From Desulfurella acetivorans A63 (GTDB lineage: Bacteria; Campylobacterota_A; Desulfurellia; Desulfurellales; Desulfurellaceae), in assembly GCA_000517565.1 (NCBI GenBank), contig CP007051.1:1279949-1343948 (forward strand): 64,000 nt of DNA, given 5' to 3'. The notes under the pieces were generated by a model that was given only the letters and a program-made list of their open reading frames with translations, searched no databases and was not told the DNA's origin. This document shows, piece after piece, positions 330-19,158 of the stretch. How positions within the stretch are numbered: the stretch's first letter is position 1; each line of letters begins with the position of its first letter. The position numbers and the translations under genes were made by a program.

Positions 330-1184
330 TTACTTTTTTGTATAATCGTAGAAGCCTTTGCCGCTTTTTCTGCCCAGATAGCCTGCTTCTACCATTTTTA
401 CAAGCAAAGGACACGGTCTGTACTTTGAGTCTTTAAAACCTTCATACAGTACATTCTGTATGGCAAGTACTGTATCCAATCCGATAAAGTCTGCCAGTAC
501 AAATGGTCCCATCGGCTGGTTTGTGCCAAGCTTCATAGCCTTATCTATATCCTCAATAGAGGCTATACCTTCATAGTAAGCATATATTGCTTCATTAATC
601 ATGGGTATAAGCACACGGTTTACGATAAAGCCTGGGTAATCCTTTGATAAAGCTGGATTTTTATCAAGTGATTTTGCCAGATCAAGTACAGTGTTATAGG
701 TATCTTGGCTTGTTGCAATACCCCTTATTACCTCTACAAGCTCCATAACAGGTACTGGGTTCATAAAGTGCATACCAATTACCTTATCTGGCCTTTTAGT
801 TTGAAAACCAAGTTTTGTGATGGATATGGAAGAAGTATTTGAAGCAATTATTGAGCCTTCTTTTACAATTGAGTCTAGCTTTGAGAAGAGCTCAAGCTTA
901 AGAGCCTCGTTTTCCGGTGATGCTTCAATACAAAAATCCACATCTGAAACATCATTTAAGTTTGTAGTGGTTTTTATGTTTTTTAGAGTTGCTTCTATCT
1001 GACTTTCCTGTATGGTATTTTTTTTAGCCTGCCTTTTTAAGTTTTCTTCTATTGTTTTTAGTGCTTTGTCAAGCTGGGTTTGAGCTATATCATATAGCAC
1101 GACAGAATAGTTATGCAAAGCAAATACATGGGCTATCCCATTTCCCATCTGGCCTGCACCTACAACGCCTACTTTATTAATCAT
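330..1184 (-). CDS. hbd: 3-hydroxybutyryl-CoA dehydrogenase
   Basis: 284 residues. Oxidises 3-hydroxybutyryl-CoA to acetoacetyl-CoA (or the reverse) with NAD(P). The N-terminal Rossmann motif GVVGAGQMGNGIAH is complete; the catalytic His lies in HFMNPVPVMELVE and the conserved Asn in NRVLIPMINEA. Length matches short-chain 3-hydroxyacyl-CoA dehydrogenases (about 282). I chose the ATG at 1182-1184, preceded by AAGGAGGATAAA, over an in-frame ATG 24 bp upstream that precedes the ribosome site. It is followed 9 bp later by a crotonase. Upstream is only a thiolase stub, so the classic thiolase-hbd-crotonase operon has lost its first gene here. Confidence 0.95.
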   Translation of the reverse strand: MINKVGVVGAGQMGNGIAHVFALHNYSVVLYDIAQTQLDKALKTIEENLKRQAKKNTIQESQIEATLKNIKTTTNLNDVSDVDFCIEASPENEALKLELFSKLDSIVKEGSIIASNTSSISITKLGFQTKRPDKVIGMHFMNPVPVMELVEVIRGIATSQDTYNTVLDLAKSLDKNPALSKDYPGFIVNRVLIPMINEAIYAYYEGIASIEDIDKAMKLGTNQPMGPFVLADFIGLDTVLAIQNVLYEGFKDSKYRPCPLLVKMVEAGYLGRKSGKGFYDYTKK

Positions 1185-1194
1185 TTTATCCTCC

Positions 1195-1260
1195 TTAAAC
1201 ATTTTCAAATATCGCTGCTACTGCTTCACCACCACCTATGCAAAGAGTGGCACAAAACAA
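1195..1260 (-). pseudogene. thiolase 3' remnant (C-terminal ~20 codons only)
   Basis: Reading the minus strand in the frame ending TAA at 1195-1197 gives CATLCIGGGEAVAAIFENV then stop. ATLCIGGG is the near-invariant C-terminal motif of acetyl-CoA acetyltransferases, close to the end of the protein. An in-frame TAA lies four codons upstream of the recognisable part and no start is available, so nothing functional can be made. The stub sits directly ahead of hbd, where a thiolase gene normally sits. It ends where the terminator of the neighbouring 15-gene operon begins, so it looks like a rearrangement scar. Confidence 0.8.
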
Positions 1261-1292: not shown

Positions 1293-1329
1293 AAAAATTA
1301 GCGGATTCTCTTTTTCGAGAAAATCCGCT
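1293..1329 (-). terminator. intrinsic terminator of the 15-gene acyl-CoA operon
   Basis: Inverted repeat AGCGGATT (1300-1307) with AATCCGCT (1322-1329), extended inwards by CTC/GAG. On the minus strand it is followed by a TAATTTTTT tract. It lies about 55 bp downstream of the last gene of the operon and 33 bp before the thiolase stub. Confidence 0.75.
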
Positions 1330-1384
1330 TTAAAAATGTCCGTTAGTAATTCTCCTTAAAAAATTTTGATTTAACTAATTTTAT

Positions 1385-1915
1385 TTAAGGTAAATGATAA
1401 CCTATAGCCGAACATAATGAATAAATAAAAAATAGTATTCCATCAATTGCTGAAAATCCACCTGCTATCTTTCCTAATGAGTGTTTTTCTGTATAACTTG
1501 CTAAAGCTAATAAAAAAGTGATAGGTACTAACAAGCCGAACATAACAGTCAAAAACAAAGCGCCTTTGCTGGCTAAATAAATTGTAGCTCCAGTAAAGTA
1601 AAAAGAAGTTAATAAAACTGCATGATAAGTAACTACTCTATTTGTTCCATTTAAGAGACCAAAAGCCAATGCCCACAATAAAAATACAAATGCTGCTGCT
1701 GATGTTGCTCCAAAGATATTTCCACTTGCAATCACAAACATCATAGCTATGGTTTCCATTATAGCAGCAGTTAACAAAATATACCCAAAATCCTTTACAT
1801 CATGGCGTTTGCTGACACCGAGATCCATCATACCAATTACCCATAAAACAACCGTAGCTTCCCATAAAAGTGTGTTCATTGCCACATGTCCAGCATGCTC
1901 AATCAAATGTTCCAT
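1385..1915 (-). CDS. six-helix membrane protein, probable small-carboxylate transporter (GPR1/FUN34/YaaH-like)
   Basis: 176 residues, almost entirely hydrophobic with about six membrane segments. The segment SGNIFGATSAAAFVFLLW resembles the NTFGAT-type motif of acetate/succinate permeases of the SatP family, and size matches. The N-terminal NPAPLGL signature typical of that family is not present, so an AmiS/UreI-like channel is an alternative. I chose ATG at 1913-1915, preceded by AGGAGG at 8 bp; a GTG 9 bp further upstream overlaps that site. Being the last gene of an acyl-CoA operon, it would plausibly import the carboxylic acid used by the pathway. Confidence 0.5.
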   Translation of the reverse strand: MEHLIEHAGHVAMNTLLWEATVVLWVIGMMDLGVSKRHDVKDFGYILLTAAIMETIAMMFVIASGNIFGATSAAAFVFLLWALAFGLLNGTNRVVTYHAVLLTSFYFTGATIYLASKGALFLTVMFGLLVPITFLLALASYTEKHSLGKIAGGFSAIDGILFFIYSLCSAIGYHLP

Positions 1916-1944
1916 AAAAAACACCTCCTAAAGATATTAATTTT

Positions 1945-2721
1945 TTAACAAAAAATCCCAACTTCGTTTTCTTTTCTCTTTGTAACAAAATCTTCCATTC
2001 TTTTTCTCGCATTTGAGTCTAAAGAAAACATAGTTAATACATTAATCAACTCAATAAATTTGGATTTATCTTTGTGAGTGTTTGACCATTTCTTAATAAA
2101 CTGGACTGAATGCGTGGCATTAGAAATAATTTTCCAGGCAATTTCTAAAGTTTTATTTCTTAAATCATCTTTCTCTGCTATACAATCTACTAAACCAATT
2201 CTTTGAGCTTCATATACATCAATCGCCTCACCTATCAACGAAAGCCTATTGATTTGTTTTATCCCAAGAATTGTATAGCCAAATGACAATGCTGCGGGCG
2301 GTATTAAACCTAATTTTGCTTCTGATAAAGCAAATTTAGATTCTTTAGTCGCAATTACGACATCCATTAATAAAAGTATTTCAAAACCACCACCATAAGC
2401 TAAGCCATTAACCATTCCTATCATAGGCTTTTCAATTTCAAGTAGTGATTCAAAAACTTTTAAAAGTGTGTTAAAAAAATTGTCTGCTTCTTCTTTATTT
2501 TTTAATTCATACGTGGCTTTAATATCATCACCTGCACTAAACGCTCTACCTACACCAGAAACAACAACCACACCTGTTTTACTATTTTTGGCTAATTCTA
2601 CAGTTTCGTAAAATTCTTCCCACATATCCTTTGTAAATGCGTTGAGTTTTTCGGGTCTATTTAGTTGAATCCAACTAATACTGTTTTCTTCAGTATAAAT
2701 GATGTTTGTAAAATCAGGCAT
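1945..2721 (-). CDS. enoyl-CoA hydratase/isomerase family protein
   Basis: 258 residues, full crotonase length. Both acidic residues expected of a true hydratase are present: the Glu in GGGFEI and the Glu in LSEAKLGLIPP. The CoA/oxyanion segments VSGVGRAFSAGDDI and MVNGLAYGGGFE are intact. This is the second crotonase of the operon; the other (11498-12268) looks like methylglutaconyl-CoA hydratase. This one follows the 4-hydroxybutyryl-CoA dehydratase homologue by 14 bp, so hydration of crotonyl-CoA or a similar product of that enzyme is a reasonable guess. Substrate is not readable from sequence. Confidence 0.85.
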   Translation of the reverse strand: MPDFTNIIYTEENSISWIQLNRPEKLNAFTKDMWEEFYETVELAKNSKTGVVVVSGVGRAFSAGDDIKATYELKNKEEADNFFNTLLKVFESLLEIEKPMIGMVNGLAYGGGFEILLLMDVVIATKESKFALSEAKLGLIPPAALSFGYTILGIKQINRLSLIGEAIDVYEAQRIGLVDCIAEKDDLRNKTLEIAWKIISNATHSVQFIKKWSNTHKDKSKFIELINVLTMFSLDSNARKRMEDFVTKRKENEVGIFC

Positions 2722-2735
2722 TATTTGCTCCTTTT

Positions 2736-4163
2736 CTACTTAATTTCTAGTAGTTCTTTTACAAATGACTTTTTTTCATCTACATTTGCTAATCTTTGTA
2801 TAAATATGTTCGGAGTAATAGGAGAACCGCCACCATGGATAGCTCCTGCTAAATGTGGGCCAGCTATCCAATACTCAACAAATTTTATTAGTTTCATTCT
2901 TTCTTCTGTAGTAACAGAATCACTTCCTTTTAAATAATGCTCTATATACTTGCCAATTTCTGGATTTTTTAGATCTTCCTCGGAAGGTGCCGTAACACAT
3001 ACACCACCAGTAATATCTGCAAGATTTATCGCTGCTTGCGCTATGGCTGGTAAACCTAGGGTTTTTGATACATTAGAATACAAAGCATTTGGCAAATATA
3101 CACCTGATTTCGTTTTTATTCCTTCATATCCCGCCGCTAAACCACAAGCATAACAACTTTCTTGACCCTTTACTATATCAGTAATTTTATTTACTATATG
3201 GGACGCATTTTGGATGCCATTGTACTCTGACATCAGCTTTGCAGCTCCAACCATAGTATCTATAAAACCTGCTTTGCAACCTGAACCCACATATCTATGA
3301 ATATCAGTAAAATTACTTACCAATGAACCAGCAAAATTATATTCCTCGCACATAAATACTCTATCCCACGGCACAAATACATTATCAAATATGACTAAAA
3401 AAGTTCCTCTGTCTCCATATGGATTACCAGATTCCCAGCCGGGGGTTTCTCTTTTTTTAGCTTCATATGCATTATTTTGCAAAACATACGTTACACCTTC
3501 CGTGCCAGATTCAATAGCAAAAGCAACAGCATAAGCCTTATCAGATTCTTTTAATGCTATCGTTGGCATAACAACGGTTTCATCTACGACCAACGCTCCA
3601 GATTGACAAATTTTGGCACCTTTTACTACTATACCATCAGTTTTTTTCTCTAAAATTTTTAAATACATATCATCTTGTTGGCTTGGACTTTTAGACCTAT
3701 CGCCCCTTACATCGGTTAGCGCTCCTGATACGGCTAAATCGTTTTGTTGTACATACTTGATATAATCTAATAACCTATTATGATATGTAGTTTTTAAAGT
3801 TTCATCCATATCATAGGTAGTTACATATAAGGCATTTAAAATATCACAACCCACGCAACGGTAATTGCAGGTTGCTAACTTTTGACTTAAAAGCCTTGCT
3901 AATTTAATGCGTTTTATAAGATCTTCTTTTTCCGTATAAATATGCAAAAATCTATTAATTGGTTCATTAACAAATTGTGAATTTGCAACCATTAAATCTT
4001 TAAATTCCTCTTTTAAAGCTAAATCATATGTTAAACCAATTGAGTCAATCATTGGTTTAATGTTGGGATGTTCAACAAAATTATCTATTTTTTTCCCATT
4101 AATATAAAGAGCTGGCTTTTTTTTGGAAATTCTTTTTACATATTCTTGCTTCGAAGATAGCAT
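2736..4163 (-). CDS. 4-hydroxybutyryl-CoA dehydratase / vinylacetyl-CoA isomerase family protein
   Basis: 475 residues, a flavin plus [4Fe-4S] radical dehydratase of the HpaB/AbfD superfamily. The four cluster ligands known from Clostridium aminobutyricum (Cys99, Cys103, His292, Cys299) are all matched: Cys99 and Cys103 in CNYRC, and His289 and Cys296 in HRYVGSGC, with the same spacings. That makes a true dehydratase/isomerase more likely than a flavin monooxygenase relative. The known reaction converts 4-hydroxybutyryl-CoA to crotonyl-CoA and isomerises vinylacetyl-CoA. A CoA-transferase lies immediately upstream and a crotonase downstream. In this operon the substrate could instead be a methyl-branched 3-enoyl or 4-hydroxyacyl-CoA; this is inference. 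Confidence 0.85.
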
Positions 4164-4244
4164 ACACCCTCCTTTCTTTTTAACTTTTTTACCCTTTATT
4201 TTTTAATTTTTTATATTAATTTTTTAACACAAAAATCTAAACTA

Positions 4245-5792
4245 TTAACTGTTGGGGTTCGCTACTCCTTTTGGTGCAATAACCAAATCCATATAACCGT
4301 GTTTATGGTCTTTTAATTCATTTGCACTAGGATATCTTCTATCTGGAGACACATCAAACATCCAGTGTTTTGTTTTAATACCTAATTTTGCCGCTTCTTT
4401 TTCTAATTCTTCTCTATCATCTGGATGAGCAATACTAATTAATTTTCTGGCTTTTTCTGCATCTGTACAAGCCATAAGGTTTACTATCCCATATTCTGTG
4501 GCAACATAGTTAACAAATTGCGATGGAACATCTACAACATCTCCTCTATCAAGCATTCCAACAATACGTGATTTTCCATCTGGTGTTCTAGAAGTTGCCG
4601 CAAGCACTGTTCTTCCACCTCTGGATAATTGCCCCCCTACTGTAAATTGAAATTGCCCACCAGTGTTAGATATAGGCCTGCCACCAACACAACTTGAAAC
4701 AACCTGACCCCTGATATCAATCTTTGCAAAGCTCATTATCCCCATAAAATTATCGACCATAGATAATGTTAAAAAGTTATTTGTGTAATTTATATCATAA
4801 GCAGCAAACATTGGATTATGGTGCATCCATTCAAAATATCTTTCAGGAATAAACGGTACGGCATAAGCCCAAGCGCATCTTCCTTGATCTATAGATTTTT
4901 GAGAATTATCAATCTTTCCTTTTTCTATTAACGTAAAAGCCCATTCTCCTATCATTTCTGTATGCACGCCAAGATGTTTTAAATCAGAATCAGATATAGC
5001 TAAAACAACAGCTGTTGGTAAAGAACCAATTCCTACCTGCAAAACATCACCATTTCGCATTATTGATAGGATATGTTCAGCTATTTTTTTATCTGTCTCA
5101 GATGGAATTATATTGCGTTCGTCAAGGCGTGGATATTGAAAATCAGGATCTGATAAATCTACCTCAATAAAATAATCCACATCATCAATATGTAAATTAA
5201 CATTTCTACCTGGTTCACACCATGCATGATCTTCTCTTATTTCACATACAAATTTTTTACAAGTTTTAGCTGTTATCATAAAATTTGATACACCATAACT
5301 TCCATTTACATAGCTCCCTTCAGGTTTTGCAATTGTAGCAATTCCCCAATCAGCTACTCGTTGCGATTTTTCTTTTCTATAAAATCTTGCAAATTGGTAA
5401 TTCATATGCATTGCCCATCCCCACTGGTACCAATCAAACCCCTGCCAGCCTTGTTTTATCGCATCTTTTGTACCTTTATGGATAAATCCCTGATGCTGGA
5501 TATGATATTTACCTTCTTTATCGTATCTAAGACCAAAATCTGTACCTAAAAATGCATTATCAACTGCCCACATTTCAATATTTTGTAATTTATCTGGACC
5601 ATCACCTAATCTCTGAAATATAGCTTTTCTCGGAGCCACAGCATCTGTTCCAACCATACACCCATAAATCCAATCACCAGATTTAACCATACTGGCAAAC
5701 TTTTCTGCTGTGATTGTCTTGTTTCTAATTTTCTGCATCACAGGATTGCTCTGTGCCAATGATCCGTTTTTAAAATCAGAAAAGTTACTCAT
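4245..5792 (-). CDS. acetyl-CoA hydrolase/transferase family CoA-transferase
   Basis: 515 residues, class I CoA-transferase of the Cat1/4-hydroxybutyrate CoA-transferase type. Recognised by GIGSLPTAV, the HTEMIGEW segment that normally carries the catalytic glutamate, and the C-terminal GGQLSRGGRTVLA/YGIVNLMACTDAEKARKLISIAHPD block. It would move CoA from acetyl-CoA or succinyl-CoA onto a free carboxylic acid in the cytoplasm. The position between the VOC protein and the dehydratase homologue suggests it activates the acid feeding the operon (isovalerate, 4-hydroxybutyrate or similar). ATG at 5792 has an AGGAGG site. Donor and acceptor cannot be told from sequence. Confidence 0.88.
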   Translation of the reverse strand: MSNFSDFKNGSLAQSNPVMQKIRNKTITAEKFASMVKSGDWIYGCMVGTDAVAPRKAIFQRLGDGPDKLQNIEMWAVDNAFLGTDFGLRYDKEGKYHIQHQGFIHKGTKDAIKQGWQGFDWYQWGWAMHMNYQFARFYRKEKSQRVADWGIATIAKPEGSYVNGSYGVSNFMITAKTCKKFVCEIREDHAWCEPGRNVNLHIDDVDYFIEVDLSDPDFQYPRLDERNIIPSETDKKIAEHILSIMRNGDVLQVGIGSLPTAVVLAISDSDLKHLGVHTEMIGEWAFTLIEKGKIDNSQKSIDQGRCAWAYAVPFIPERYFEWMHHNPMFAAYDINYTNNFLTLSMVDNFMGIMSFAKIDIRGQVVSSCVGGRPISNTGGQFQFTVGGQLSRGGRTVLAATSRTPDGKSRIVGMLDRGDVVDVPSQFVNYVATEYGIVNLMACTDAEKARKLISIAHPDDREELEKEAAKLGIKTKHWMFDVSPDRRYPSANELKDHKHGYMDLVIAPKGVANPNS

Positions 5793-5807
5793 ACAAAACC
5801 TCCTATT

Positions 5808-6242
5808 TTAAGTTTTTATTTCTTCAATTAATTCAATTAATACTCCGTGAAATGAAGATGGGTGTATAAATATATAACGTATGGCACCATTAAAAGGAGG
5901 AAGCTTATTTACTTCTATTGGTTGCTGTGGTATTAGTTTGATATTATTCTTTTGTAATTTTTCTATTAATGCATCTAAATTTTTTACTTTTAAAGCTATA
6001 TGATTTAATCCTTCTCCTCTTTTTTGTATAAACTTGGCAACAACACCATCGGGGTAAGTAGATTCAATAAATTGTAATTGTGTGTCACCAATTTTTGCAG
6101 ATTTTACAAATAATTTTTCATCTGGCAATTCCCACTCATAATCAAAATCAATTCCAAACAGCATAGTAAACTCTTCAGCGGTTTTTTTTGCGTCTTCTAC
6201 TGCTATGGCCACTTCTTCTAAACCAACTAAATATTCACTCAT
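5808..6242 (-). CDS. VOC-fold protein, methylmalonyl-CoA epimerase-like
   Basis: 144 residues from the ATG at 6240-6242 (preceded by AGGAGG); a longer in-frame extension overlaps the previous gene and is unlikely. The glyoxalase/VOC fold is seen as two beta-alpha repeats. Of the four metal ligands of methylmalonyl-CoA epimerase, Gln (DTQLQF), the second His (GLNHIALKV) and the C-terminal Glu (GVLIELIEE) are present. The first His is replaced by Glu (LEEVAIAVED rather than DHVGIAV). It sits one base after the biotin carrier gene in a methylcrotonyl-CoA carboxylase operon, so it may epimerise a different branched CoA ester, or be a binding protein. Confidence 0.7.
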   Translation of the reverse strand: MSEYLVGLEEVAIAVEDAKKTAEEFTMLFGIDFDYEWELPDEKLFVKSAKIGDTQLQFIESTYPDGVVAKFIQKRGEGLNHIALKVKNLDALIEKLQKNNIKLIPQQPIEVNKLPPFNGAIRYIFIHPSSFHGVLIELIEEIKT

Positions 6243-6243
6243 T

Positions 6244-6735
6244 TCAATCCTCCTTTGGTTCAATTTCAACCAATAATTCAAGAGGCCCAACCTGAGCTCC
6301 TTTCTCAATATAAATTTTTTTTATGCAGCCATTTACACTGCTTTTAAGTTCGTTTAAAACTTTCATTGACTCTAAAACAACAACTGTATCGCCTTTTTTT
6401 ACTATATCATTTTCCATAAATTTAATTTCTTTTATTATACCAGGCATTGGAGATTTAATATTATTTTCTATCACTTCATGACTTGAAAGTGTTTCATTTT
6501 CTGATATTTCTTCTATTATAAATTCTTCATCTTCCGCCCATATAACTATTTTATTTTTCGCTTTATAAACATCTAGAACAATTGCTGTATTGTCTTCGAT
6601 ATTTAGTACTAAATAATCATTCCCGTATCTAAAAACCTGAAAAGGTAAACTTGAATCTTGATAAGATAATAAATATGAATCGCCTTTTCTTAATAATTCA
6701 TATTCTAGAGATTCATTATTAACTTTTATGTTCAT
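6244..6735 (-). CDS. biotin carboxyl carrier protein of the acyl-CoA carboxylase
   Basis: 163 residues. The C-terminal ~70 residues form a biotinyl domain with the lysine in VVLESMKVLNELKS (ESMK replacing the usual EAMK). The N-terminal ~80 residues look like the BC-carboxyltransferase linker domain (NESLEYELLRKGDSYLLS and following). In most methylcrotonyl-CoA carboxylases this part is fused to the biotin carboxylase as one alpha subunit; here it is a separate gene 1 bp downstream of the carboxylase gene. Biotin would be attached by the BirA encoded at 36974-37939. Confidence 0.9.
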   Translation of the reverse strand: MNIKVNNESLEYELLRKGDSYLLSYQDSSLPFQVFRYGNDYLVLNIEDNTAIVLDVYKAKNKIVIWAEDEEFIIEEISENETLSSHEVIENNIKSPMPGIIKEIKFMENDIVKKGDTVVVLESMKVLNELKSSVNGCIKKIYIEKGAQVGPLELLVEIEPKED

Positions 6736-6736
6736 T

Positions 6737-8233
6737 TTACCCCCTCCATGATCCTATCATTTCCCAACAAGACGGCAAAGTTGCTTCACCAGAAAATGTT
6801 AAATCTGAAGAGCTTTGTTTTAAAAACTCATACAAAACTATTGCTTCTTTTAAGTGAATAGGATTTTGTTTTTGATTGAATAATTCATCTTTATAAATGC
6901 TCAAAAATTGGGTATTATAATCACCTTCTATAAATTTTTTATGTTTGAAAATATTTTTTAAAAGAGGAATCGTAGTTTTAATGGGTGCAATATGATATTC
7001 TGATAAGGCTCTATACATCTTTTTTATTGCCATCATTCTATTTGGAGCTTTTACAATCAATTTAGCTATTAATGGATCATAATGTATTAATACTTCTGAA
7101 CCTTCAAAAAATCCAGAATCCACTCTAATACCGAAACCTGCAGGTTCCCTATAATGTTCTATTTTTCCAATAGAAGGCATAAAATTATTATCTGTATCTT
7201 CGGAATAAATTCGAGACTCTATGGCGTGCCCATTTATACGATTGTTAAGTTCATCTTGAGATAACTCAATAGGTTTTTCTTCTGCAATATCAATTTGGGA
7301 AGCTATTAAATCAAATCCACTAATCTCTTCTGTTACAGGATGTTCAACTTGAATCCTGGCATTAACTTCAAGAAAATAAAAATTTTTACTTTTTTTATCA
7401 TAGATAAATTCAACAGTTCCAGCATTATGATAGCCGGCTTTTTTTGTAACAAGTAAAGCAGCTTCGCCCATCTTTTTGGCTGTCTGTCTATCGATAGTTG
7501 GAGATGGACTTTCCTCGATAATTTTTTGATATCTTCTTTGTACAGAACATTCTCTTTCAGGAAAATATAAACCATTACCAAATTTATCAATTAAAAATTG
7601 TATTTCTATATGATGGGCATCTTCTATGTATTTTTCGATATATACGGTTGGATCAGCAAATGCAGCTTTTGCCTCTTCTCTGGCAACTTTTATTGCATCT
7701 TCTAAGTCTTTATCGTCATAAACAATTCTCATTCCTTTTCCGCCACCACCTGCAGATGCTTTTATTAAGACTGGATAACCTATCTCATTTGCTAATTTAT
7801 GGGCCTGCTCAATTGATTCTATAGTCCCACCTGGAGTCGTCGGTATGCCAGCCGATTGTGCTATAATTCTAGAATTAATTTTATCCCCTAAATTTTTCAT
7901 GCATTCGCTTGGAGGACCAATCCATATTAAACCATTTTCTTGAACCATTTTGGCAAAAACGGGATTTTCAGCCAAAAAACCATAACCAGGATGAATTGCA
8001 TCACAATTAGCTTGCTTGGCTGTATTGATAATTTTTTCCATATTAAGATAACTTTTTATTGCTTCAGGTTCGCCTATATTATAGGCTTTATCTGCAAAAG
8101 AAATGTGTTTAGATAGTTTATCTGCTTCAGAATAAACTCCAATTGACTCAATTCCAAGTAACTTTAATGTTTTCATTATCCTTATAGCAATTTCTCCTCT
8201 ATTGGCCACAAGTACCCTTTTAATCTTTCTCAT
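6737..8233 (-). CDS. biotin carboxylase subunit of (methylcrotonyl-CoA) carboxylase
   Basis: 498 residues, ATP-grasp biotin carboxylase that charges the biotin carrier using bicarbonate and ATP. Seen: N-terminal KRVLVANRGEIAIRI, the glycine-rich loop KASAGGGGKGMRIV, catalytic EVNARIQVEHPVTE, and the C-terminal biotin carboxylase domain. It lacks the fused biotinyl domain of typical MccA/LiuD (about 650 residues), which is supplied by the next gene. It lies 3 bp after the carboxyltransferase gene, whose sequence points to methylcrotonyl-CoA as substrate. Confidence 0.92.
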   Translation of the reverse strand: MRKIKRVLVANRGEIAIRIMKTLKLLGIESIGVYSEADKLSKHISFADKAYNIGEPEAIKSYLNMEKIINTAKQANCDAIHPGYGFLAENPVFAKMVQENGLIWIGPPSECMKNLGDKINSRIIAQSAGIPTTPGGTIESIEQAHKLANEIGYPVLIKASAGGGGKGMRIVYDDKDLEDAIKVAREEAKAAFADPTVYIEKYIEDAHHIEIQFLIDKFGNGLYFPERECSVQRRYQKIIEESPSPTIDRQTAKKMGEAALLVTKKAGYHNAGTVEFIYDKKSKNFYFLEVNARIQVEHPVTEEISGFDLIASQIDIAEEKPIELSQDELNNRINGHAIESRIYSEDTDNNFMPSIGKIEHYREPAGFGIRVDSGFFEGSEVLIHYDPLIAKLIVKAPNRMMAIKKMYRALSEYHIAPIKTTIPLLKNIFKHKKFIEGDYNTQFLSIYKDELFNQKQNPIHLKEAIVLYEFLKQSSSDLTFSGEATLPSCWEMIGSWRG

Positions 8234-8236
8234 AGC

Positions 8237-9844: not shown

Positions 9845-10727
9845 TTGTTTCCTCCAATTCGTTGATTAAAGCCATTGCAAAATCTTTCCAATCAGCAACG
9901 ATATTGTATCGAGCTCGTTTAAATATAGGCGCTTCTTCGTCTTTATTTATAGCAACTACACATTTTACATTTTTTATACCCGATAAATGTTGAGTAGCTC
10001 CACTTATGCCAAAAGCAAAATATAAGCTTGCTGATAACATAGCACCTGATTGACCAATTTGATATTGGTGTGATATCCAACCATTATCAACCGCTGCCCT
10101 TGATGCTCCTACTACCCCTCCAAATAATTTTGCTATTCTTTCTAGAATAGCAAAACCTTCTTTTGAGCCTATACCTCTTCCTCCACCTATTACAATCTTT
10201 GCTTTATCTAATTCAACTTCTTTTTCTATCTTTTCTTCTTTGACAATTTCTATATTGTCTTTTTTGCATTCTAACCACTCAATTTCCATCAATTGGTTTG
10301 TTGTTAGTTGTTCGAAATATTTTTCTTTTAAAATTAAAACCAATGGAAGATGCTCCGGTTTGTAATCAATAACAGCTTTATCGCCATAAGCACTATGTGA
10401 AAAAATAAACTCATCATATTTAATTTCACTAACACCAAAAACACATGATGCACTAAGTTTTAGTGTTAAAATTCCTCCAATATGAGCACCTACTGTACCA
10501 TTCGTTAAAATAACATCATATTTTGATGCAAGTGGCAAAATGGTTTCAATTGAATTCGGCGGTATATTATTGATTCCATATGCTTTTTTTACATCTATTT
10601 CTAATTCTTTTTTGTTTGTAAAAACTATAGCGTCAATGTTATCACTAAATTTTTTTGCAACAAAATTTAACTCACCTAACCTATCTTTGTCATCATCACT
10701 TATTATTAACACATTTTTTATAATCAT
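9837..10727 (-). CDS. etfA: electron transfer flavoprotein alpha subunit
   Basis: 296 residues. The C-terminal FAD domain is clear: GGGRGIGSKEGF, VGASRAAVDNGW, QIGQSGAMLSASLYFAFGISGATQHLSGI and INKDEEAPIF. The ATG at 10725-10727 overlaps the etfB stop as ATGA and has AAGGAG 8 bp upstream; a TTG two codons earlier is less likely. With EtfB it takes electrons from the acyl-CoA dehydrogenase of the same operon (14938-16101). No ETF:quinone oxidoreductase or bifurcating partner is visible within the operon. Confidence 0.92.
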   Translation of the reverse strand: MIIKNVLIISDDDKDRLGELNFVAKKFSDNIDAIVFTNKKELEIDVKKAYGINNIPPNSIETILPLASKYDVILTNGTVGAHIGGILTLKLSASCVFGVSEIKYDEFIFSHSAYGDKAVIDYKPEHLPLVLILKEKYFEQLTTNQLMEIEWLECKKDNIEIVKEEKIEKEVELDKAKIVIGGGRGIGSKEGFAILERIAKLFGGVVGASRAAVDNGWISHQYQIGQSGAMLSASLYFAFGISGATQHLSGIKNVKCVVAINKDEEAPIFKRARYNIVADWKDFAMALINELEETNG

Positions 10728-11488
10728 AAGCAATGCTCCTTCTTTAGATTTTCTAATAGTAGTTTAGCTGTAAAAGATAGATCATCGTTAGGCAGTGTTT
10801 CGTTAATATACTCATACTTTGGAATCTTTGCAGACAATTCCTGTGCCCAGTTAAATTTTTCGAAATTAATTTCTTCTTCTGTTATTAATGGTTTTGTTTT
10901 ACTTTTCATAATTTCTTTTAAGTTAGGAATTCTTGGTAAATTACATGGGGCATCAGTTATTGAAGCCACAAATTTTTCTTTTATAAGCAAGTGTAAATTC
11001 TTATTATCCAATTGTTGAACACATAAAAAAGATTTACCATTAGACTCAGATGAAATTGATACGATATAAGGTAAGTAAATACGATTAAGTATTCCTGCCA
11101 CTAAAGGTGGAACCATTTCTCTTTCTAAATCCGACGATACTCTTCCAAGAATGACTATTTCAATATTATATTTTTCAATTATATTGGCTAGGTTATAAGC
11201 CGTCTGAAATGGATCATCGTTACTCGACTCAATTATTATAAGCTCGTCTGCACCCATTGAAAGAGCTTTTTTTAAGGTTGATACGTATTCTTTTTTAGTA
11301 TAGCTAATTGCATAAAGTTTACTTTCTAATTTTGATCTTAGTTGAAGCCCAACCTCAAGTGCATGTTCATCGTACAATCCTAAAACATATTTATAATCAC
11401 CTGACATTCTGTTGCCTTGTAAATAAAATTTTTCAGCCGGGACTTCATAGTCTGGCACTGCCTTTATACATACACCAATATTTATCAT
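10724..11488 (-). CDS. etfB: electron transfer flavoprotein beta subunit
   Basis: 254 residues of the EtfB family, beginning INIGVCIKAVPDYE. It has the ALSMGADELIIIES segment and the IVILGRVSSDLEREMVPPLVA nucleotide-binding region. Its stop overlaps the etfA start by 4 bp, typical of coupled etfBA translation. It accepts electrons from the isovaleryl-CoA dehydrogenase-type enzyme. The family also includes bifurcating forms; I could not decide this from the loop sequence by eye. Confidence 0.9.
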   Translation of the reverse strand: MINIGVCIKAVPDYEVPAEKFYLQGNRMSGDYKYVLGLYDEHALEVGLQLRSKLESKLYAISYTKKEYVSTLKKALSMGADELIIIESSNDDPFQTAYNLANIIEKYNIEIVILGRVSSDLEREMVPPLVAGILNRIYLPYIVSISSESNGKSFLCVQQLDNKNLHLLIKEKFVASITDAPCNLPRIPNLKEIMKSKTKPLITEEEINFEKFNWAQELSAKIPKYEYINETLPNDDLSFTAKLLLENLKKEHCL

Positions 11489-11497
11489 CCTACCTCC

Positions 11498-12268
11498 TCA
11501 TTTATTTTTCCACTGAGGTTTTTGTTTATTTAAAAATGACTCAATACCTATTTTTAAATCTTGTGCAGAAAAGTTAACTATTCTTAACAAAGATAAATAC
11601 TCACTTTCACAGGAGGAGGGGTTGTGAGAAACATTTATCATATCCATTAGTAGTTTTAAAATTAAAGGGCTTTTTTGAGCAATTTGGCTCGCAATTTCTT
11701 TCGCTTTTTTTAAAGGATTTTCATCAATAAAGTGAACTAAACCAATTCTATAAGCCTCTTGAGAGCTAATAGTTTTGCCCATAAGAGTCAGTAATATAGC
11801 CTCTCTTTCGCCAACTGCTCTCTTAACATATGGAAATATAACATAAGGCAGTATACCTAAATTAATTTCGGTTAAACCAAAACGCGTATCAGGATGCGAA
11901 ACAACTATATGAGCATTTGCAACTAAACCAAAACCACCTCCCAAAGCATATCCAGATACTGCTGCAATTAAAGGTTTTTTCAGTATATCAACTATCCTCA
12001 AAACATCTACATTAATATTTTTCTTTGAATAATGTTCTAATGCTGTTAATTCAACACCTTCTGCAAATTCTTTAATATCGCCGCCAGCACAAAAAACATC
12101 TCCTGCTGAGGTTAATATAACTACATATATAGATTCGTCTTCAGCTAATTTTTTGATACTTTCTAGTAATTCAGACGACAAAGATTCATCTAACGCATTT
12201 TTTTTATCTAAATTATTCATATATACAACCGCTACATTACCTTCTTTTTCAATCAATACTTTACTCAT
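11498..12268 (-). CDS. enoyl-CoA hydratase family, probable methylglutaconyl-CoA hydratase
   Basis: 256 residues. Crotonase fold with oxyanion segments TSAGDVFCAGGDIKEF and VSGYALGGGFGLVANAH. The first catalytic Glu position is Gly (GGGFGL) while the second is kept (GLTEINLGI). The segment LGILPYVIFPYVKRAVGERE closely resembles bacterial methylglutaconyl-CoA hydratases (LiuC), which have a VISPYV..AIGER block there. This enzyme hydrates 3-methylglutaconyl-CoA to HMG-CoA. Lying between DUF35 and etfB, next to MCC and HMG-CoA synthase genes, it joins the carboxylase to HMG-CoA. A generic enoyl-CoA hydratase is the alternative. Confidence 0.8.
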   Translation of the reverse strand: MSKVLIEKEGNVAVVYMNNLDKKNALDESLSSELLESIKKLAEDESIYVVILTSAGDVFCAGGDIKEFAEGVELTALEHYSKKNINVDVLRIVDILKKPLIAAVSGYALGGGFGLVANAHIVVSHPDTRFGLTEINLGILPYVIFPYVKRAVGEREAILLTLMGKTISSQEAYRIGLVHFIDENPLKKAKEIASQIAQKSPLILKLLMDMINVSHNPSSCESEYLSLLRIVNFSAQDLKIGIESFLNKQKPQWKNK

Positions 12269-12279
12269 TTTAACCTCTA

Positions 12280-12300
12280 AAAAGGTAAGGGGGAAACCCC
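12280..12300 (-). other. short GC hairpin with T-tract between DUF35 and hydratase genes
   Basis: On the minus strand GGGG-TTT-CCCC (12290-12300) is followed by CTTACC and a five-T run. It sits in the only non-trivial gap (38 bp) in the middle of the operon. It could act as a weak attenuator or mRNA end that lowers expression of the genes after DUF35. The stem is short, so this is tentative. Confidence 0.35.
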
Positions 12301-12306
12301 TCAGCC

Positions 12307-12702
12307 TTAATCTTCAACTATAGCTTTTGGACCATAAATTATAATACCAGCTTTACCTTCAACAAATAATCTCCTAAATACTACACTTACTTTTTTACCG
12401 ATCTCTATATTGTTAAAATCGGTATCGACAATTTGTAACATTAATCTAGCTCCGTTTGTAAGTTCTACTATAGCTACAGCATAAGGTGAAAAATCTTCAA
12501 AACCCTCGGGTGCTGAATAAATAACAGTGTAAGTAAGAATTTTACCTTCTCTTGGAAGATCAATAATTTCAATATTTTCCGAGTGGCATTTTGGACATAC
12601 TTTTCTGGCAGGATACATTGTGTAACCACAATCTTTACACTTACCACCTTTTAACATGTATCTTTGTGGTTTTTCTCTCCAATTTCTCGGTATAGTTAAC
12701 AT
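12307..12702 (-). CDS. DUF35 OB-fold/Zn-ribbon protein, partner of thiolase-HMG-CoA synthase
   Basis: 131 residues. The N-terminal rubredoxin-like zinc ribbon has two CxxC pairs (CKDCGY and CPKCHS), followed by an OB-fold domain (GKILTYTVIYSAPEGFEDF, PYAVAIVELTNGARLM). In archaea this family bridges acetoacetyl-CoA thiolase and HMG-CoA synthase and lets them share a CoA-binding channel. Here the gene follows HMG-CoA synthase and thiolase in the same order as in archaeal operons and overlaps the thiolase stop by 1 bp, so the same complex is expected. Confidence 0.88.
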   Translation of the reverse strand: MLTIPRNWREKPQRYMLKGGKCKDCGYTMYPARKVCPKCHSENIEIIDLPREGKILTYTVIYSAPEGFEDFSPYAVAIVELTNGARLMLQIVDTDFNNIEIGKKVSVVFRRLFVEGKAGIIIYGPKAIVED

Positions 12703-13862
12703 TAAATCACCTCCAAAATTGTAACTGTAACAGTGGCACCAGAACCACCTAAATTATGGGCCAATCCTACTTTTGCGTTATTAACCTGGAGATCTTTAGC
12801 TTGACCTCTTAATTGTTCTACAAGATTCACAATTTGTGCAATACCAGTTGCACCAACCGGGTGCCCTTTACCTTTTAAACCCCCGCTTGGGTTTACAGGA
12901 ATTTTTCCATCAATCTCTGTTAGACCGTCTTCTGTAGCTTTTGCACCTTTACCTTTTTCAAAAAAACCTAAATCTTCTATTGCACATATTTCTGCGATAG
13001 TAAAACAGTCATGTACCTCAGCAACATTTATATCTTGAGGTGATTTACCAGCCATTTGATAAGCTTTTTTTGCAGCTTCTATTGTAGCTTGAAATGTAAC
13101 AAAATCATTTCTTTGAGCTAAAGCAATTGTATCTGTTGCCTGGGCTATACCAGAAATTTTAATGGGTTTAGCAGCATTTGACAATTTTTTTGCTTTCTCT
13201 AATGGCATTAAAATGACACTTGCTGCCCCATCAGTCATTGGAGAACAATCATACAATCCAAGAGGATCTGCTATTATTGAAGCATTCAAAACATCATCAA
13301 TTGTGATTATGTTGTGAAATTGTGCTTTTGGATTTTTTGAAGCGTTCTTATGATTTTTTACAGCAACTGCTGCAAGTTGTTTTCTTGTAGCATTGAAATC
13401 ATGCATGTATTTTTTTGCTACCAATGCAAATAAGCCAGGAAAAGTAACGCCTTGATAACCCTCATACTCTCTATCAGCAGCCATAGATAATGAATAAACA
13501 CCCTGAGAAGTTACTACATCGGTCATTTTTTCAACACCCGTGACAAGCACTACATCAGACATTCCTGATGCTACTTCCATATAAGCATGTCTTAAAGCCA
13601 CTCCACCCGAAGCACAAGCATTTTCTATCCTAGTGGATGGTATATGTAAAAATCCTAAATAATCAGCTAAAATTGCAGCCATATGCTCTTGTTCTACAAA
13701 AGTACCGCCACTAAAGTTTCCCAAATAAATAGAGTCTATTTTATCAACCCCAGAGCTTTTTATTGCTTCTAAGCTAGCTTCAACAGCCAGATCTCTCCAG
13801 GACTTCTCCCATAAATATCCAAAATTTGTTATTCCAATCCCTACTACGGCTACATCTCTCAT
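12702..13862 (-). CDS. archaeal-type acetyl-CoA C-acetyltransferase (SCP-x/lipid-transfer-like thiolase)
   Basis: 386 residues. Catalytic Cys in ENACASGG, His in [22 protein letters not shown] in place of the usual NEAF motif, and a C-terminal [11 protein letters not shown]. The HDCF form and the lack of a C-terminal CxG motif put it in the archaeal/SCP2-thiolase class, which works with HMG-CoA synthase and DUF35. It interconverts 2 acetyl-CoA and acetoacetyl-CoA. It is not a homologue close to the degenerate thiolase stub at 1195-1260, whose ATLCIGGG end is the classical type. Confidence 0.87.
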
Positions 13863-13864
13863 TA

Positions 13865-14911
13865 TTAATCCTCCCTCATTTTAATTTTACCTCTAAGAAA
13901 AGCATAAGTTGCATAATTTACATACTGTTTTCTATCAGCATAGTACTTCAAAAGAGGCGCATTATTTCGCACTTTTTCAAGTCTTTCTGTTACCCTAAAT
14001 ATAAAGGAATCGCTTCCAGCCCCAGATCCAAACGAAGTCACTAGAATTATATCGTTAGCTTTGGCAATATCTAAAACAGAAGCTAAACCCAATAATGAAC
14101 AGCCTGAATATGTATTGCCAATGTAAGGAGCAACCCATCCTGGTTCAAACTGTTCTTTTGTAAATCCTAGCATCTTTGATGCTCTTAAAGGAAAAGCTCC
14201 ATTTGGCTGATGAAAAACGCAATACGTAATGTCCTTTGGTGTCATTTTCGCTTTTTCCATAACTCCTTTGGCAGAATTTAAGGTATGATGAAAATATGCT
14301 GGAGCACCAGTAAATGGACCGGTGTGAGTAGGATATGATTGACCATCTCTTCTCCAAAAGTCTGGTGTATCTGTGGTATATGAATATGTGGCAATAACCT
14401 CAGCTATAACATTATCGTTTCCCATTATAAATGCCGCTCCACCTGCAGCTGCTGTATATTCCAATGGGTCTTTAGGGGCACCTTGAGAAGTATCCGAGCC
14501 AATACCAAGTCCATATTTAATTTCACCCGATTTTACTAAGCCATAAACCACAAAAACAGTTTCACTGCCAGCTTTGCAGGCAAACTCATAATCAGCCACA
14601 TGAACAGCTGGAGTTATACCTAATGCATCAGCTACAATTGTTGCGGATGGTTTAACTGCATACGGTTTTGATTCAGAGCCAATATACACGGCTCCTATTT
14701 CCTGTGGATCAATTTCAGCTCGCTTTAAAGCATTTCTAGCTGCTTCATAAGCTATAGTTACTGAATCTTCATCTTTTGCAGGAACTGTTTTTTCCCTTAC
14801 TAATAAACCATTTTTTAGAGTTTCTGCATTTTCTCCCCATTGAGCGGCAATTTCTTCTACTTTAATCCTGCGTTTAGGAACATAACACCCATATCCTACG
14901 ATACCTGTCAT
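13865..14911 (-). CDS. hydroxymethylglutaryl-CoA synthase, archaeal type
   Basis: 348 residues. Catalytic triad expected of HMG-CoA synthases is visible: Glu80 ([11 protein letters not shown]), Cys112 (YEFACKAG) and His234 ([13 protein letters not shown]). Further archaeal-HMGCS blocks are [49 protein letters not shown] and [11 protein letters not shown]. Length matches the archaeal enzyme (about 350), not the longer animal/bacterial one. It condenses acetyl-CoA with acetoacetyl-CoA to HMG-CoA, or runs in reverse. It lies 2 bp before the thiolase gene. Use in the mevalonate pathway is unlikely given the MCC/IVD context. Confidence 0.92.
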
Positions 14912-14937
14912 AACTAAAACCTCCTTAAACTAAAATC

Positions 14938-16101
14938 TTATAAATCTGTAAAGCCTTCTTCTATACGTCTTGCAAGCAAAATCTTCATCATTTCTGTTGT
15001 TCCGGCACCAATATCATAAAGTTTTGCATCTCTCCAATACATCTGAACGCGATAATCAGTTGTATAACCATAACCACCAAGAATTTGGATTGCTTCTTCT
15101 GCTGATTTTACTGCAGCTTGAGCTGATGTCATTTTAACCAAAGCAGTTGCTGCTCTCAATTTCTTTGAACCTGGATTTTTTCTCCATGCTTCAGCTAATT
15201 GATATAGATAAAGTCTATTCAATTCAAGTTGAGCTAAAATATAACCAAGTTTTTCTTGAATAAGTTGGTAATTTATAATAGGCTGGTTAAATTGTATTCT
15301 TTCTTTGGCATATTTTGACGCAATATCTAAAGAGCCTTTAATCATACCTAGATTACTGCCTGACAAACCAATTCTTTCTACATCTAAACCTTCCATCATA
15401 ATATGAATTCCCTCTCCTTCAGCTCGTAAGATATTTTCTTCAGGTACTTCTGTGTCATTAAAAGTTACAAAACCTGTAGGAGAAGCTCTCATTCCCATTT
15501 TATGCATTTTTTCTACAGAAATATTTCCAAAATCTTTTTCTACTATAAAAGCAGAAACTCCTCTTTTAGGATCATCTGAAGTTTTTGCGTAAACTACAAA
15601 AATATCTGCAACAGGACCATTAGTTATAAAAATTTTGCTTCCTCGTAATATATATCTATCACCTTTTTTAATAGCTCTTGTTCTAGGATGTGCAGCATCT
15701 GAGCCTATTTCTGGTTCTGTTATGCATATGGCAGCTACTTTATCTCCGGCAGCTATAGGTGGAATATATTTTTCTTTTTGTTGTTTGTTACCAGCTCTAT
15801 TAATAACATTGCCTGCAAGTATAGCATGAGCTCCTAATGTCATAGCAATTGCAGGTGAATATACAGACATTTCTTCATGTATTACAACGCTTGTTAATAA
15901 ATCATCGCCTAATCCACCAAGATCACTATCTAACATCATCCCTGTAAGACCAATGTCACCCATTTTTTTCCATAGTTCAGGTGGCATATACTCTTGTTGA
16001 TCCCATAACAATGTGTCTTTAAATTCACGTTCACAAAAATCTCTTACAGTATTAGCAAATTCAACCACTTCCTCACGTAATCCTAACTTCGAAATAAGCA
16101 T
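14938..16101 (-). CDS. acyl-CoA dehydrogenase, isovaleryl-CoA dehydrogenase-type active site
   Basis: 387 residues, FAD-dependent acyl-CoA dehydrogenase (ICITEPEIGSDAAHPRT; IFITNGPVADIFVV; EEAIQILGGYGYTTDYRVQMYWRDAK). The usual catalytic Glu of short/medium-chain enzymes (YEGTSE) is replaced by Ala366 in IGAGTTE. A Glu is instead present at 242 in GLDVERIGLSG, the position used by isovaleryl-CoA and long-chain dehydrogenases. With MCC in the operon, isovaleryl-CoA to 3-methylcrotonyl-CoA is the best reading. It is the first gene after the sigma-54 promoter; ATG at 16101 follows AGGAGG by 6 bp. Confidence 0.88.
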   Translation of the reverse strand: MLISKLGLREEVVEFANTVRDFCEREFKDTLLWDQQEYMPPELWKKMGDIGLTGMMLDSDLGGLGDDLLTSVVIHEEMSVYSPAIAMTLGAHAILAGNVINRAGNKQQKEKYIPPIAAGDKVAAICITEPEIGSDAAHPRTRAIKKGDRYILRGSKIFITNGPVADIFVVYAKTSDDPKRGVSAFIVEKDFGNISVEKMHKMGMRASPTGFVTFNDTEVPEENILRAEGEGIHIMMEGLDVERIGLSGSNLGMIKGSLDIASKYAKERIQFNQPIINYQLIQEKLGYILAQLELNRLYLYQLAEAWRKNPGSKKLRAATALVKMTSAQAAVKSAEEAIQILGGYGYTTDYRVQMYWRDAKLYDIGAGTTEMMKILLARRIEEGFTDL

Positions 16102-16128
16102 TTTTACCTCCTAAACTTTTAGTTTCTC

Positions 16129-16248
16129 TACTAATTAATATAAGCAAAAACTGTTCCATATTTTAATTTATTATTATTTATTAATTTTTATTTTAGATTA
16201 TTTTAAAAAAATGTTATTTTATAAATATTTTTTTACTAATTAATATAA
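16129..16248. repeat. 15-bp direct repeat pair flanking the sigma-54 promoter
   Basis: TACTAATTAATATAA occurs at 16129-16143 and again, identically, at 16234-16248, 105 bp apart. The first copy spans from the -12 element to the expected start site; the second lies about 80 bp upstream of the -24 box, where activator sites are often found. The core is AT-rich and near-palindromic (TTAATTAA-like), so chance or a nucleoid-protein site remains possible. Confidence 0.45.
16143..16158 (-). promoter_or_regulatory. sigma-54 (-24/-12) promoter of the acyl-CoA operon
   Basis: The minus strand reads TGGAACAGTTTTTGCT. GG (plus 16156-16157) and GC (plus 16144-16145) are separated by exactly 10 bases, and it matches the TGGCAC-N5-TTGCW consensus with one mismatch in the -24 box. 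Transcription would start about 30 bp before the acyl-CoA dehydrogenase ATG. The AAA+ activator gene immediately upstream supports it. Confidence 0.8.
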
Positions 16249-19140: not shown

Positions 19141-19158
19141 ATAATACATTCCTTAGAT

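What the first reader, a model, noticed from the sequence alone, without database searches (positions are those of the whole stretch)
1293..16158. Lyase-free leucine/isovalerate-type operon: HMG-CoA synthase and thiolase take the place of HMG-CoA lyase
One operon holds an isovaleryl-CoA dehydrogenase-type enzyme, ETF, MCC (BC, BCCP, CT), a LiuC-like hydratase, then an archaeal-type HMG-CoA synthase, thiolase and DUF35, but no HMG-CoA lyase. In classic Liu pathways HMG-CoA is split by a lyase to acetyl-CoA and acetoacetate. Here reverse HMG-CoA synthase plus thiolase would give three acetyl-CoA with no free acetoacetate and no reactivation cost. The reverse reading (acetyl-CoA to isovaleryl-CoA) is also possible with the same genes.
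Basis: partly seen in the sequence, partly recalled or inferred. Interest (0 to 1): 0.85.

Follow-up and report, generated by a model that had tools for sequence, protein, structure and literature searches.

The report
Isovalerate breakdown without HMG-CoA lyase
A sulfur-breathing bacterium, and apparently many other anaerobes, carry a leucine/isovalerate-degrading gene set in which the enzyme pair that archaea use to start making isoprenoids seems to run backwards and stands in for the usual splitting enzyme, saving energy.

Summary
A minus-strand operon (16101 to about 330) encodes an isovaleryl-CoA-dehydrogenase-type enzyme, archaeal-type HMG-CoA synthase (HMGCS), thiolase, DUF35, a hydratase, ETF and a split methylcrotonyl-CoA carboxylase (MCC), followed by a 4-hydroxybutyrate-type module. 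The genome is complete and very likely Desulfurella acetivorans. It has no HMG-CoA lyase above the family cut-off and no HMG-CoA reductase.

The arrangement is not local. HMGCS-thiolase-DUF35-MCC-hydratase clusters recur in Cloacimonadota, WOR-3, Stahlbacteria, Zixiibacteriota, Aminicenantes, Coatesbacteria and others. Their HMGCS sequences lie in a bacterial clade apart from the archaeal (mevalonate) one. Among 57 MCC-bearing genomes, lyase occurs in 2/13 with bacterial-clade HMGCS and 32/44 without (p=3e-4). That test ignores phylogeny; the phylogeny-aware version lacked power.

Best explanation: MCC drives HMG-CoA formation, and the HMGCS/thiolase/DUF35 complex runs in reverse to give three acetyl-CoA. 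No open-licence paper searched describes this. In D. acetivorans it would be a second 'irreversible' condensing enzyme run backwards, after citrate synthase. Direction, complex formation and growth on isovalerate remain unproven.

The parts
16405..17718 (-). sigma-54-dependent transcriptional activator with PAS-like N-terminus, likely regulator
   Evidence: PrdR/NifA-type, 361 bits to NF041552, below its cut-off; 66-70% identical syntenic copies in G001 and G010
16143..16158 (-). sigma-54 (-24/-12) type promoter TGGAACAGTTTTTGCT, about 42 bp before the first gene
   Evidence: GG-N10-GC core kept in G001 and G010 at 49-56 bp upstream
14938..16101 (-). isovaleryl-CoA-dehydrogenase-type acyl-CoA dehydrogenase
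   Evidence: best PDB hits are isovaleryl-CoA dehydrogenases; E242 aligns with human IVD E254; IGAGT motif
13865..14911 (-). archaeal-type HMG-CoA synthase, proposed to run in reverse
   Evidence: E80, C112, H234 conserved; bacterial clade
12702..13862 (-). thiolase of the HMGCS complex
   Evidence: 361 bits to 6esq_A
12307..12702 (-). DUF35 (zinc ribbon + OB fold) subunit
   Evidence: best hit 6esq_E, 109 bits
11498..12268 (-). enoyl-CoA hydratase, proposed 3-methylglutaconyl-CoA hydratase
   Evidence: crotonase family, no LiuC-specific signal; role inferred from position; 50% identical copy in the G024 operon
10724..11488 (-). electron transfer flavoprotein beta
   Evidence: PF01012
9837..10733 (-). 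electron transfer flavoprotein alpha
   Evidence: PF00766
8237..9844 (-). methylcrotonyl-CoA carboxylase carboxyltransferase (beta)
   Evidence: MCC-beta 657-662 bits, PCC about 302 bits
6737..8233 (-). biotin carboxylase subunit
6244..6735 (-). biotin carboxyl carrier protein
   Evidence: PF00364
5808..6308 (-). glyoxalase-fold, methylmalonyl-CoA-epimerase-like protein; role in this pathway unknown
   Evidence: TIGR03081 88 bits, below cut-off 115
4245..5792 (-). CoA-transferase of the 4-hydroxybutyrate/butyrate type; may activate isovalerate and/or 4-hydroxybutyrate
2736..4163 (-). 4-hydroxybutyryl-CoA dehydratase / vinylacetyl-CoA isomerase type enzyme
   Evidence: 395 bits to 1u8v; C99, C103, H289, C296 align with the Fe-S ligands known for that family
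1945..2721 (-). second enoyl-CoA hydratase
1385..1924 (-). small membrane protein, possible short-chain acid channel
   Evidence: only a weak, below-cut-off hit to GPR1/FUN34/YaaH; 49% identical homologue in the G024 operon
330..1208 (-). 3-hydroxybutyryl-CoA dehydrogenase
   Evidence: 433 bits, over cut-off 420

Best explanation
This is a sigma-54-controlled operon for complete oxidation of isovalerate (from leucine or the free acid). Isovaleryl-CoA is oxidised to 3-methylcrotonyl-CoA by the IVD-type dehydrogenase, passing electrons to the co-encoded ETF. The split MCC carboxylates it to 3-methylglutaconyl-CoA at the cost of ATP, and the hydratase gives HMG-CoA. Instead of a lyase, a thiolase/HMGCS/DUF35 complex of the archaeal type works backwards: HMGCS cleaves HMG-CoA with CoA to acetyl-CoA and acetoacetyl-CoA, and the thiolase splits the latter, with CoA, into two more acetyl-CoA. 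Three acetyl-CoA enter the TCA cycle; no free acetoacetate forms and no thioester has to be rebuilt. Shown here: gene content, operon layout, promoter, catalytic residues, absence of lyase and reductase, conservation of the cluster, and a separate HMGCS clade. Inferred: flux direction, physical complex, substrate uptake and activation (perhaps by the operon's CoA-transferase), and the hydratase's identity. The CoA-transferase, AbfD-type, hydratase and HBD genes look like a 4-hydroxybutyrate branch that joins at acetoacetyl-CoA.
For: No HMG-CoA lyase and no HMG-CoA reductase in a 100%-complete genome. IVD and MCC lineage signatures; a separate PCC-type carboxylase exists elsewhere. Cluster conserved with MCC in many phyla: 14/35 bacterial-clade against 0/21 archaeal loci (p=8e-4). 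All 24 MCC-linked HMGCS lie in a bacterial clade; HMGCS of bacteria with HMG-CoA reductase (G084, G098) lie with archaea. Lyase absent from most MCC genomes with this HMGCS: 2/13 against 32/44 (p=3e-4). Reductase 1/16 and lyase 1/16 in genomes with linked clusters. Same species reverses citrate synthase (PMC11861179).
Against: No enzyme assay or growth test exists. HMGCS is usually regarded as irreversible. The phylogeny-aware test was uninformative (6 pairs). The hydratase has no LiuC-specific signal. Nine MCC genomes have neither lyase nor HMGCS, so other routes exist. A predicted methylcitrate operon in this species proved unused during propionate growth (PMC11861179).
Confidence: 0.75

Rival explanations
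1. Biosynthetic reading: three acetyl-CoA are built into HMG-CoA, dehydrated, decarboxylated and reduced to isovaleryl-CoA, as in the myxobacterial alternative isovaleryl-CoA (AIB) route.
For: HMGCS normally runs in this direction; hydratase and dehydrogenase are reversible in principle (general knowledge).
Against: MCC would have to run backwards against ATP hydrolysis; family I CoA-transferases of the AibA/B kind are elsewhere in the genome, none in the operon; a leucine-synthesis gene (LeuA) lies beside the operon; the downstream genes are beta-oxidation-like.
Confidence: 0.08
2. Isovalerate or leucine is degraded by this operon, but HMG-CoA is cleaved by an unrecognised lyase elsewhere, and HMGCS/thiolase/DUF35 does something else.
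For: Two LeuA-type and other HMGL-superfamily proteins exist, with weak matches to the lyase model; a class-mate with MCC has neither lyase nor HMGCS, so an unknown cleavage enzyme exists somewhere in the class.
Against: None of the four superfamily members exceeds 61 bits against a cut-off of 246; HMGCS is placed in the operon and has no reductase to serve; the HMGCS-MCC link recurs across phyla.
Confidence: 0.1
3. The carboxylase and dehydrogenase act on another substrate (for example crotonyl- or propionyl-CoA), and the cluster is not an isovalerate operon.
For: The operon also holds an epimerase-like protein and a 4-hydroxybutyrate-type module.
Against: IVD catalytic signature, MCC-beta lineage, a separate PCC-type set elsewhere, and the presence of HMGCS itself, which acts on the C6 product of this route.
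Confidence: 0.05
4. HMGCS, thiolase and DUF35 serve mevalonate/isoprenoid synthesis and are in the operon by chance.
For: They are homologous to the archaeal mevalonate-entry complex.
Against: No HMG-CoA reductase in the genome or its relatives; separate clade.
Confidence: 0.02

Closest known systems
Liu / classical leucine-isovalerate catabolic pathway; anaerobic example Desulfococcus multivorans (PMC5109826)
   Same: Isovaleryl-CoA dehydrogenase, MCC, hydratase and HMG-CoA as intermediate, in one operon
   Different: HMG-CoA lyase (HmgL/LiuE) is replaced by HMGCS + thiolase + DUF35; three acetyl-CoA instead of acetyl-CoA + free acetoacetate
Archaeal acetoacetyl-CoA thiolase/HMGCS/DUF35 complex (PDB 6esq, 6et9)
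   Same: All three subunits, adjacent genes, conserved catalytic residues
   Different: Bacterial clade, no HMG-CoA reductase, embedded in a degradation operon, proposed to run in reverse
Myxobacterial alternative isovaleryl-CoA biosynthesis (AIB: MvaS, LiuC, AibA/B, AibC; from general knowledge)
   Same: HMGCS and a 3-methylglutaconyl-CoA hydratase connect acetyl-CoA with isovaleryl-CoA
   Different: AIB uses the AibA/B decarboxylase and AibC reductase; here an ATP-dependent carboxylase and IVD/ETF, so the likely direction is opposite
Citrate synthase reversal (roTCA cycle) in Desulfurella acetivorans (PMC11861179 and works cited there)
   Same: A condensing enzyme that hydrolyses a thioester, used in the cleavage direction, very likely in the same species
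   Different: Different enzyme, substrate and pathway; for HMGCS the reversal is only predicted

Membership tests
Liu / classical leucine-isovalerate pathway | Isovaleryl-CoA dehydrogenase | tested here: met
   Best PDB hits IVD; catalytic Glu and IGAGT in IVD positions
Liu / classical leucine-isovalerate pathway | Methylcrotonyl-CoA carboxylase (MCC) | tested here: met
   MCC-beta lineage; BC and BCCP adjacent
Liu / classical leucine-isovalerate pathway | 3-methylglutaconyl-CoA hydratase (LiuC/AUH) | tested here: inconclusive
   Crotonase family, no specific signal
Liu / classical leucine-isovalerate pathway | HMG-CoA lyase | tested here: not met
   None above cut-off in the complete genome
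Archaeal thiolase/HMGCS/DUF35 complex | Three homologous subunits encoded together, with catalytic residues | tested here: met
Archaeal thiolase/HMGCS/DUF35 complex | HMGCS falls in the archaeal (mevalonate) clade | tested here: not met
   Bacterial side of a 100/98 branch
Archaeal thiolase/HMGCS/DUF35 complex | Physical complex with a shared CoA site | not testable with these tools
   Needs purification or structure
Mevalonate pathway | HMG-CoA reductase | tested here: not met
   No match in G000, G001, G002, G003 or G010
AIB isovaleryl-CoA biosynthesis | AibA/B-type family I CoA-transferase decarboxylase in the cluster | tested here: not met
   PF01144 matches lie elsewhere in the genome, none in the operon
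AIB isovaleryl-CoA biosynthesis | AibC-type dimethylacrylyl-CoA reductase | not tested
   No reference sequence was searched

The most novel reading that the evidence does not exclude
The archaeal-type thiolase/HMGCS/DUF35 complex has a widespread bacterial branch whose natural job is catabolic: it splits HMG-CoA into three acetyl-CoA in anaerobic leucine/isovalerate degradation across at least seven phyla. In Desulfurella it is a second 'irreversible' condensing enzyme run backwards, beside citrate synthase.
Probability: 0.65. Interest if true: 0.85.

Novelty: new variant of a known kind. Interest (0 to 1): 0.76.

Why it matters
HMG-CoA synthase is usually treated as irreversible and is known as a biosynthetic enzyme. 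A catabolic, reverse-running branch would fill the missing last step of isovalerate oxidation in many uncultured anaerobes. It would conserve one thioester (about one ATP equivalent) per isovalerate over the lyase route, which matters for energy-poor sulfur reducers and fermenters. It would also suggest that channelling within the complex can drive the chemistry both ways. Because the host is very likely the cultured species in which citrate synthase reversal was found, the idea can be tested directly. Genome annotation would also change: such HMGCS genes should not be read as evidence of mevalonate synthesis.

Tried and rejected
(1) A lyase/HMGCS swap within the genus: G002 lacks HMGCS and has an HMGL-family gene, but it has no MCC, and the gene sits with a family III CoA-transferase and a regulator-like gene. 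Rejected as a swap. (2) A swap in class-mates G020/G022/G024, which have orthologous MCC: they have neither a lyase over cut-off nor bacterial/archaeal-type HMGCS of this family, so no clean swap. (3) Phylogeny-aware test of HMGCS/lyase exclusion: only 6 independent pairs, no power. (4) Using the MCC/GCC selectivity residue (Phe191/Gly162, PMC4673880): the residue numbering could not be matched to the alignments with certainty; not used. (5) Literature: ten searches of an open-licence library found no description of HMGCS as the HMG-CoA-cleaving step of leucine degradation. This is not proof of absence, since most subscription papers are missing. (7) Naming the small membrane protein UreI/AmiS by eye was not supported by Pfam and was dropped.
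Full report
WHAT IS THERE. The window lies at bases 1279949-1343948 of a 1.82 Mb, 100%-complete genome. On the minus strand, genes run from an acyl-CoA dehydrogenase (start 16101) through archaeal-type HMG-CoA synthase, thiolase, DUF35, enoyl-CoA hydratase, EtfB, EtfA, carboxyltransferase, biotin carboxylase and BCCP with gaps of -10 to +38 bp. They continue through a glyoxalase-fold protein, a CoA-transferase, a 4-hydroxybutyryl-CoA-dehydratase-type enzyme, a second hydratase, a small membrane protein and 3-hydroxybutyryl-CoA dehydrogenase. Beyond the window start the run goes on with a hydratase, a second acyl-CoA dehydrogenase, a second EtfBA and SucCD-like genes (L163). A sigma-54 regulator gene lies upstream, and a -24/-12-type promoter lies at 16143-16158. 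The GG-N10-GC core is kept 49-56 bp before the same gene in two relatives whose surrounding sequence differs.

ORGANISM. Two facts point to Desulfurella acetivorans. The genome has two same-genus relatives and a sister family of mostly 1.7-Mb genomes. The order and spacing of its genes also fit the accession order of proteins discussed in D. acetivorans papers: PCC subunits AHF96738/9, CoA-transferases AHF96498 and AHF97294, and citrate synthase homologue AHF97305.

IDENTITY OF THE KEY ENZYMES. The HMGCS scores 534 bits against a cut-off of 244 and matches the HMGCS of the solved archaeal complex over its full length, with E80, C112 and H234 conserved. Thiolase and DUF35 match the other two subunits. 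The carboxyltransferase belongs to the MCC lineage: 657-662 bits to human and Pseudomonas MCC, 440 to geranyl-CoA carboxylase, about 302 to propionyl-CoA carboxylase. One PDB entry (9tps) labelled PCC-beta scores 672 and also looks MCC-like. [quoted passage not shown] A separate PCC-type carboxylase exists at 395 kb. The dehydrogenase has the catalytic Glu in the IVD position (E242 aligned with human E254) and IGAGT in place of the YEGT-type motif. The hydratase is a crotonase without a specific LiuC signature.

WHAT IS MISSING. No HMG-CoA lyase reaches the curated cut-off; the four superfamily hits, at no more than 60.5 bits, include the LeuA of this window. No HMG-CoA reductase exists in this genome or its close relatives, so HMGCS has no visible mevalonate role here.

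IT IS A RECURRENT ARRANGEMENT. A scan of a GTDB species collection with an HMGCS alignment, followed by neighbourhood mapping, found HMGCS-thiolase-DUF35 followed by MCC-type carboxyltransferase, usually with hydratase, biotin carboxylase and BCCP. The hosts include Cloacimonadota, WOR-3, Stahlbacteria, Zixiibacteriota, Coatesbacteria, Aminicenantes and a bin named Puniceispirillum. Of loci with at least 3.5 kb downstream, 14 of 35 bacterial-clade and 0 of 21 archaeal ones carry MCC there (Fisher p=8e-4). In 16 genomes with such clusters, reductase was found in one (49 bits) and lyase in one.

PHYLOGENY. In a 104-sequence tree the archaeal sequences, together with bacterial HMGCS from genomes that have HMG-CoA reductase (G084, G098) and their close relatives (G248, G260), form one side of a 100/98-supported branch. 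All 24 MCC-linked sequences lie on the other, purely bacterial side, with the Desulfurella-order sequences on a long early branch. The function inferred from neighbours thus agrees with the tree. The tree is drawn with a midpoint root, so which role is older is not decided.

EXCLUSION OF THE LYASE. In 292 genomes at least 90% complete, 57 have MCC, 24 archaeal-type HMGCS and 57 HMG-CoA lyase (E<=1e-50). Among MCC genomes, lyase is in 3/17 with any archaeal-type HMGCS and 31/40 without (p=5e-5; 3/17 against 26/40, p=0.0014, using the curated cut-off). Restricting to the bacterial HMGCS clade gives 2/13 against 32/44 (p=3e-4). These are counts of genomes. A pairs test on the MCC tree had only 6 independent pairs and was uninformative. 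Nine MCC genomes have neither enzyme. One class-mate, G024, has an isovalerate-type operon with two family III CoA-transferases, AtuA, thiolase and a homologous membrane protein but neither lyase nor HMGCS, so further solutions exist.

MECHANISM. The most likely flow is isovaleryl-CoA to 3-methylcrotonyl-CoA (IVD, ETF), to 3-methylglutaconyl-CoA (MCC, ATP), to HMG-CoA (hydratase), then HMG-CoA + CoA to acetyl-CoA + acetoacetyl-CoA (HMGCS reversed), then two more acetyl-CoA (thiolase). From general knowledge, thiolase cleavage is exergonic by roughly 26 kJ/mol and HMGCS cleavage is endergonic by a comparable or larger amount. The pair would therefore be near or somewhat uphill of equilibrium at standard state, driven by MCC's ATP from above and by a low acetyl-CoA/CoA ratio below. 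No value was measured or computed here. D. acetivorans is known to run Si-citrate synthase in the cleavage direction (PMC11861179), so its cell chemistry permits this kind of reversal. The gain over the lyase route is one conserved thioester. The CoA-transferase/AbfD-type/hydratase/HBD genes look like a 4-hydroxybutyrate branch meeting at acetoacetyl-CoA.

COMPARISON. The classical route, supported by proteomics in the sulfate reducer Desulfococcus multivorans, uses HmgL (PMC5109826). An anaerobic-digester analysis of 2020 also defines isovalerate degradation as 'carboxylation + lyase + beta-oxidation' (PMC7382037). Ten searches of the open-licence library found no account of HMGCS in this role. 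The operon therefore fails one defining feature of the Liu pathway (lyase) and does not meet the clade and mevalonate setting of the archaeal complex, while working like the first and being built like the second. I rate it a new variant of a known kind.

CAUTIONS. All evidence is genomic. In this very species a predicted methylcitrate operon was not used during growth on propionate (PMC11861179). Growth of Desulfurella on isovalerate was not found reported: of the three papers holding both words none was read in full.

Noticed in passing
window 17836-19149 (-): A citrate (Si)-synthase homologue directly upstream of the regulator. It probably is AHF97305, which was purified but never showed citrate synthase activity; function unknown (PMC11861179). 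Its place beside this operon, also in G001 (66% identical), is a lead to its function.
   Followed up: partly
window 2736-5792 (-): CoA-transferase plus 4-hydroxybutyryl-CoA-dehydratase-type enzyme with aligned Fe-S ligands (C99, C103, H289, C296): a likely 4-hydroxybutyrate-degrading module; kept in G001 but not next to the core operon in G010.
   Followed up: partly
window 5808-6308 (-): Epimerase-like glyoxalase-fold protein overlapping the BCCP gene and kept in G001 and G010 at 73-75% identity; no step of the proposed pathway needs an epimerase.
   Followed up: no
window 1385-1924 (-); L159:8440-8952 (-): Small membrane protein found in two differently built isovalerate-type operons of the class; only a weak, below-cut-off hit to the YaaH acetate-channel family. 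Possible short-chain acid channel.
   Followed up: partly
L159:113-17278 (G024:C70): Class-mate operon with IVD (71%), MCC (65%), AtuA, two family III CoA-transferases and thiolase, but no HMG-CoA lyase and no HMGCS: perhaps a third way to finish isovalerate degradation.
   Followed up: partly
L160:227-3047 (G002:C35): Same-genus genome without MCC has an HMGL-family gene beside a regulator-like gene and a family III CoA-transferase; perhaps a different acyl-CoA lyase (for example for citramalyl-CoA).
   Followed up: partly
L037:5966-9645 and L047 (G045, G342): HMGCS-thiolase-DUF35 clusters with a different carboxyltransferase (36% identical) plus hydratase and biotin carboxylase: a variant cluster with unknown substrate.
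   Followed up: no
L042, L125 (G084) and L041 (G098): Bacteria with HMG-CoA reductase whose HMGCS groups with archaea, in G084 right beside the reductase gene: probable bacterial users of an archaeal-type mevalonate entry.
   Followed up: partly
L163:4811-12889 (G000:C1:1272811-1280889): Just outside the window start, a butyrate-type beta-oxidation run (hydratase, dehydrogenase, EtfBA, SucCD-like ligase) and a divergent thiolase + DUF35 pair.
   Followed up: no
PDB 9tps: A structure deposited as 'propionyl-CoA carboxylase beta subunit' aligns with the MCC lineage rather than the PCC lineage; the name may be an annotation error.
   Followed up: no
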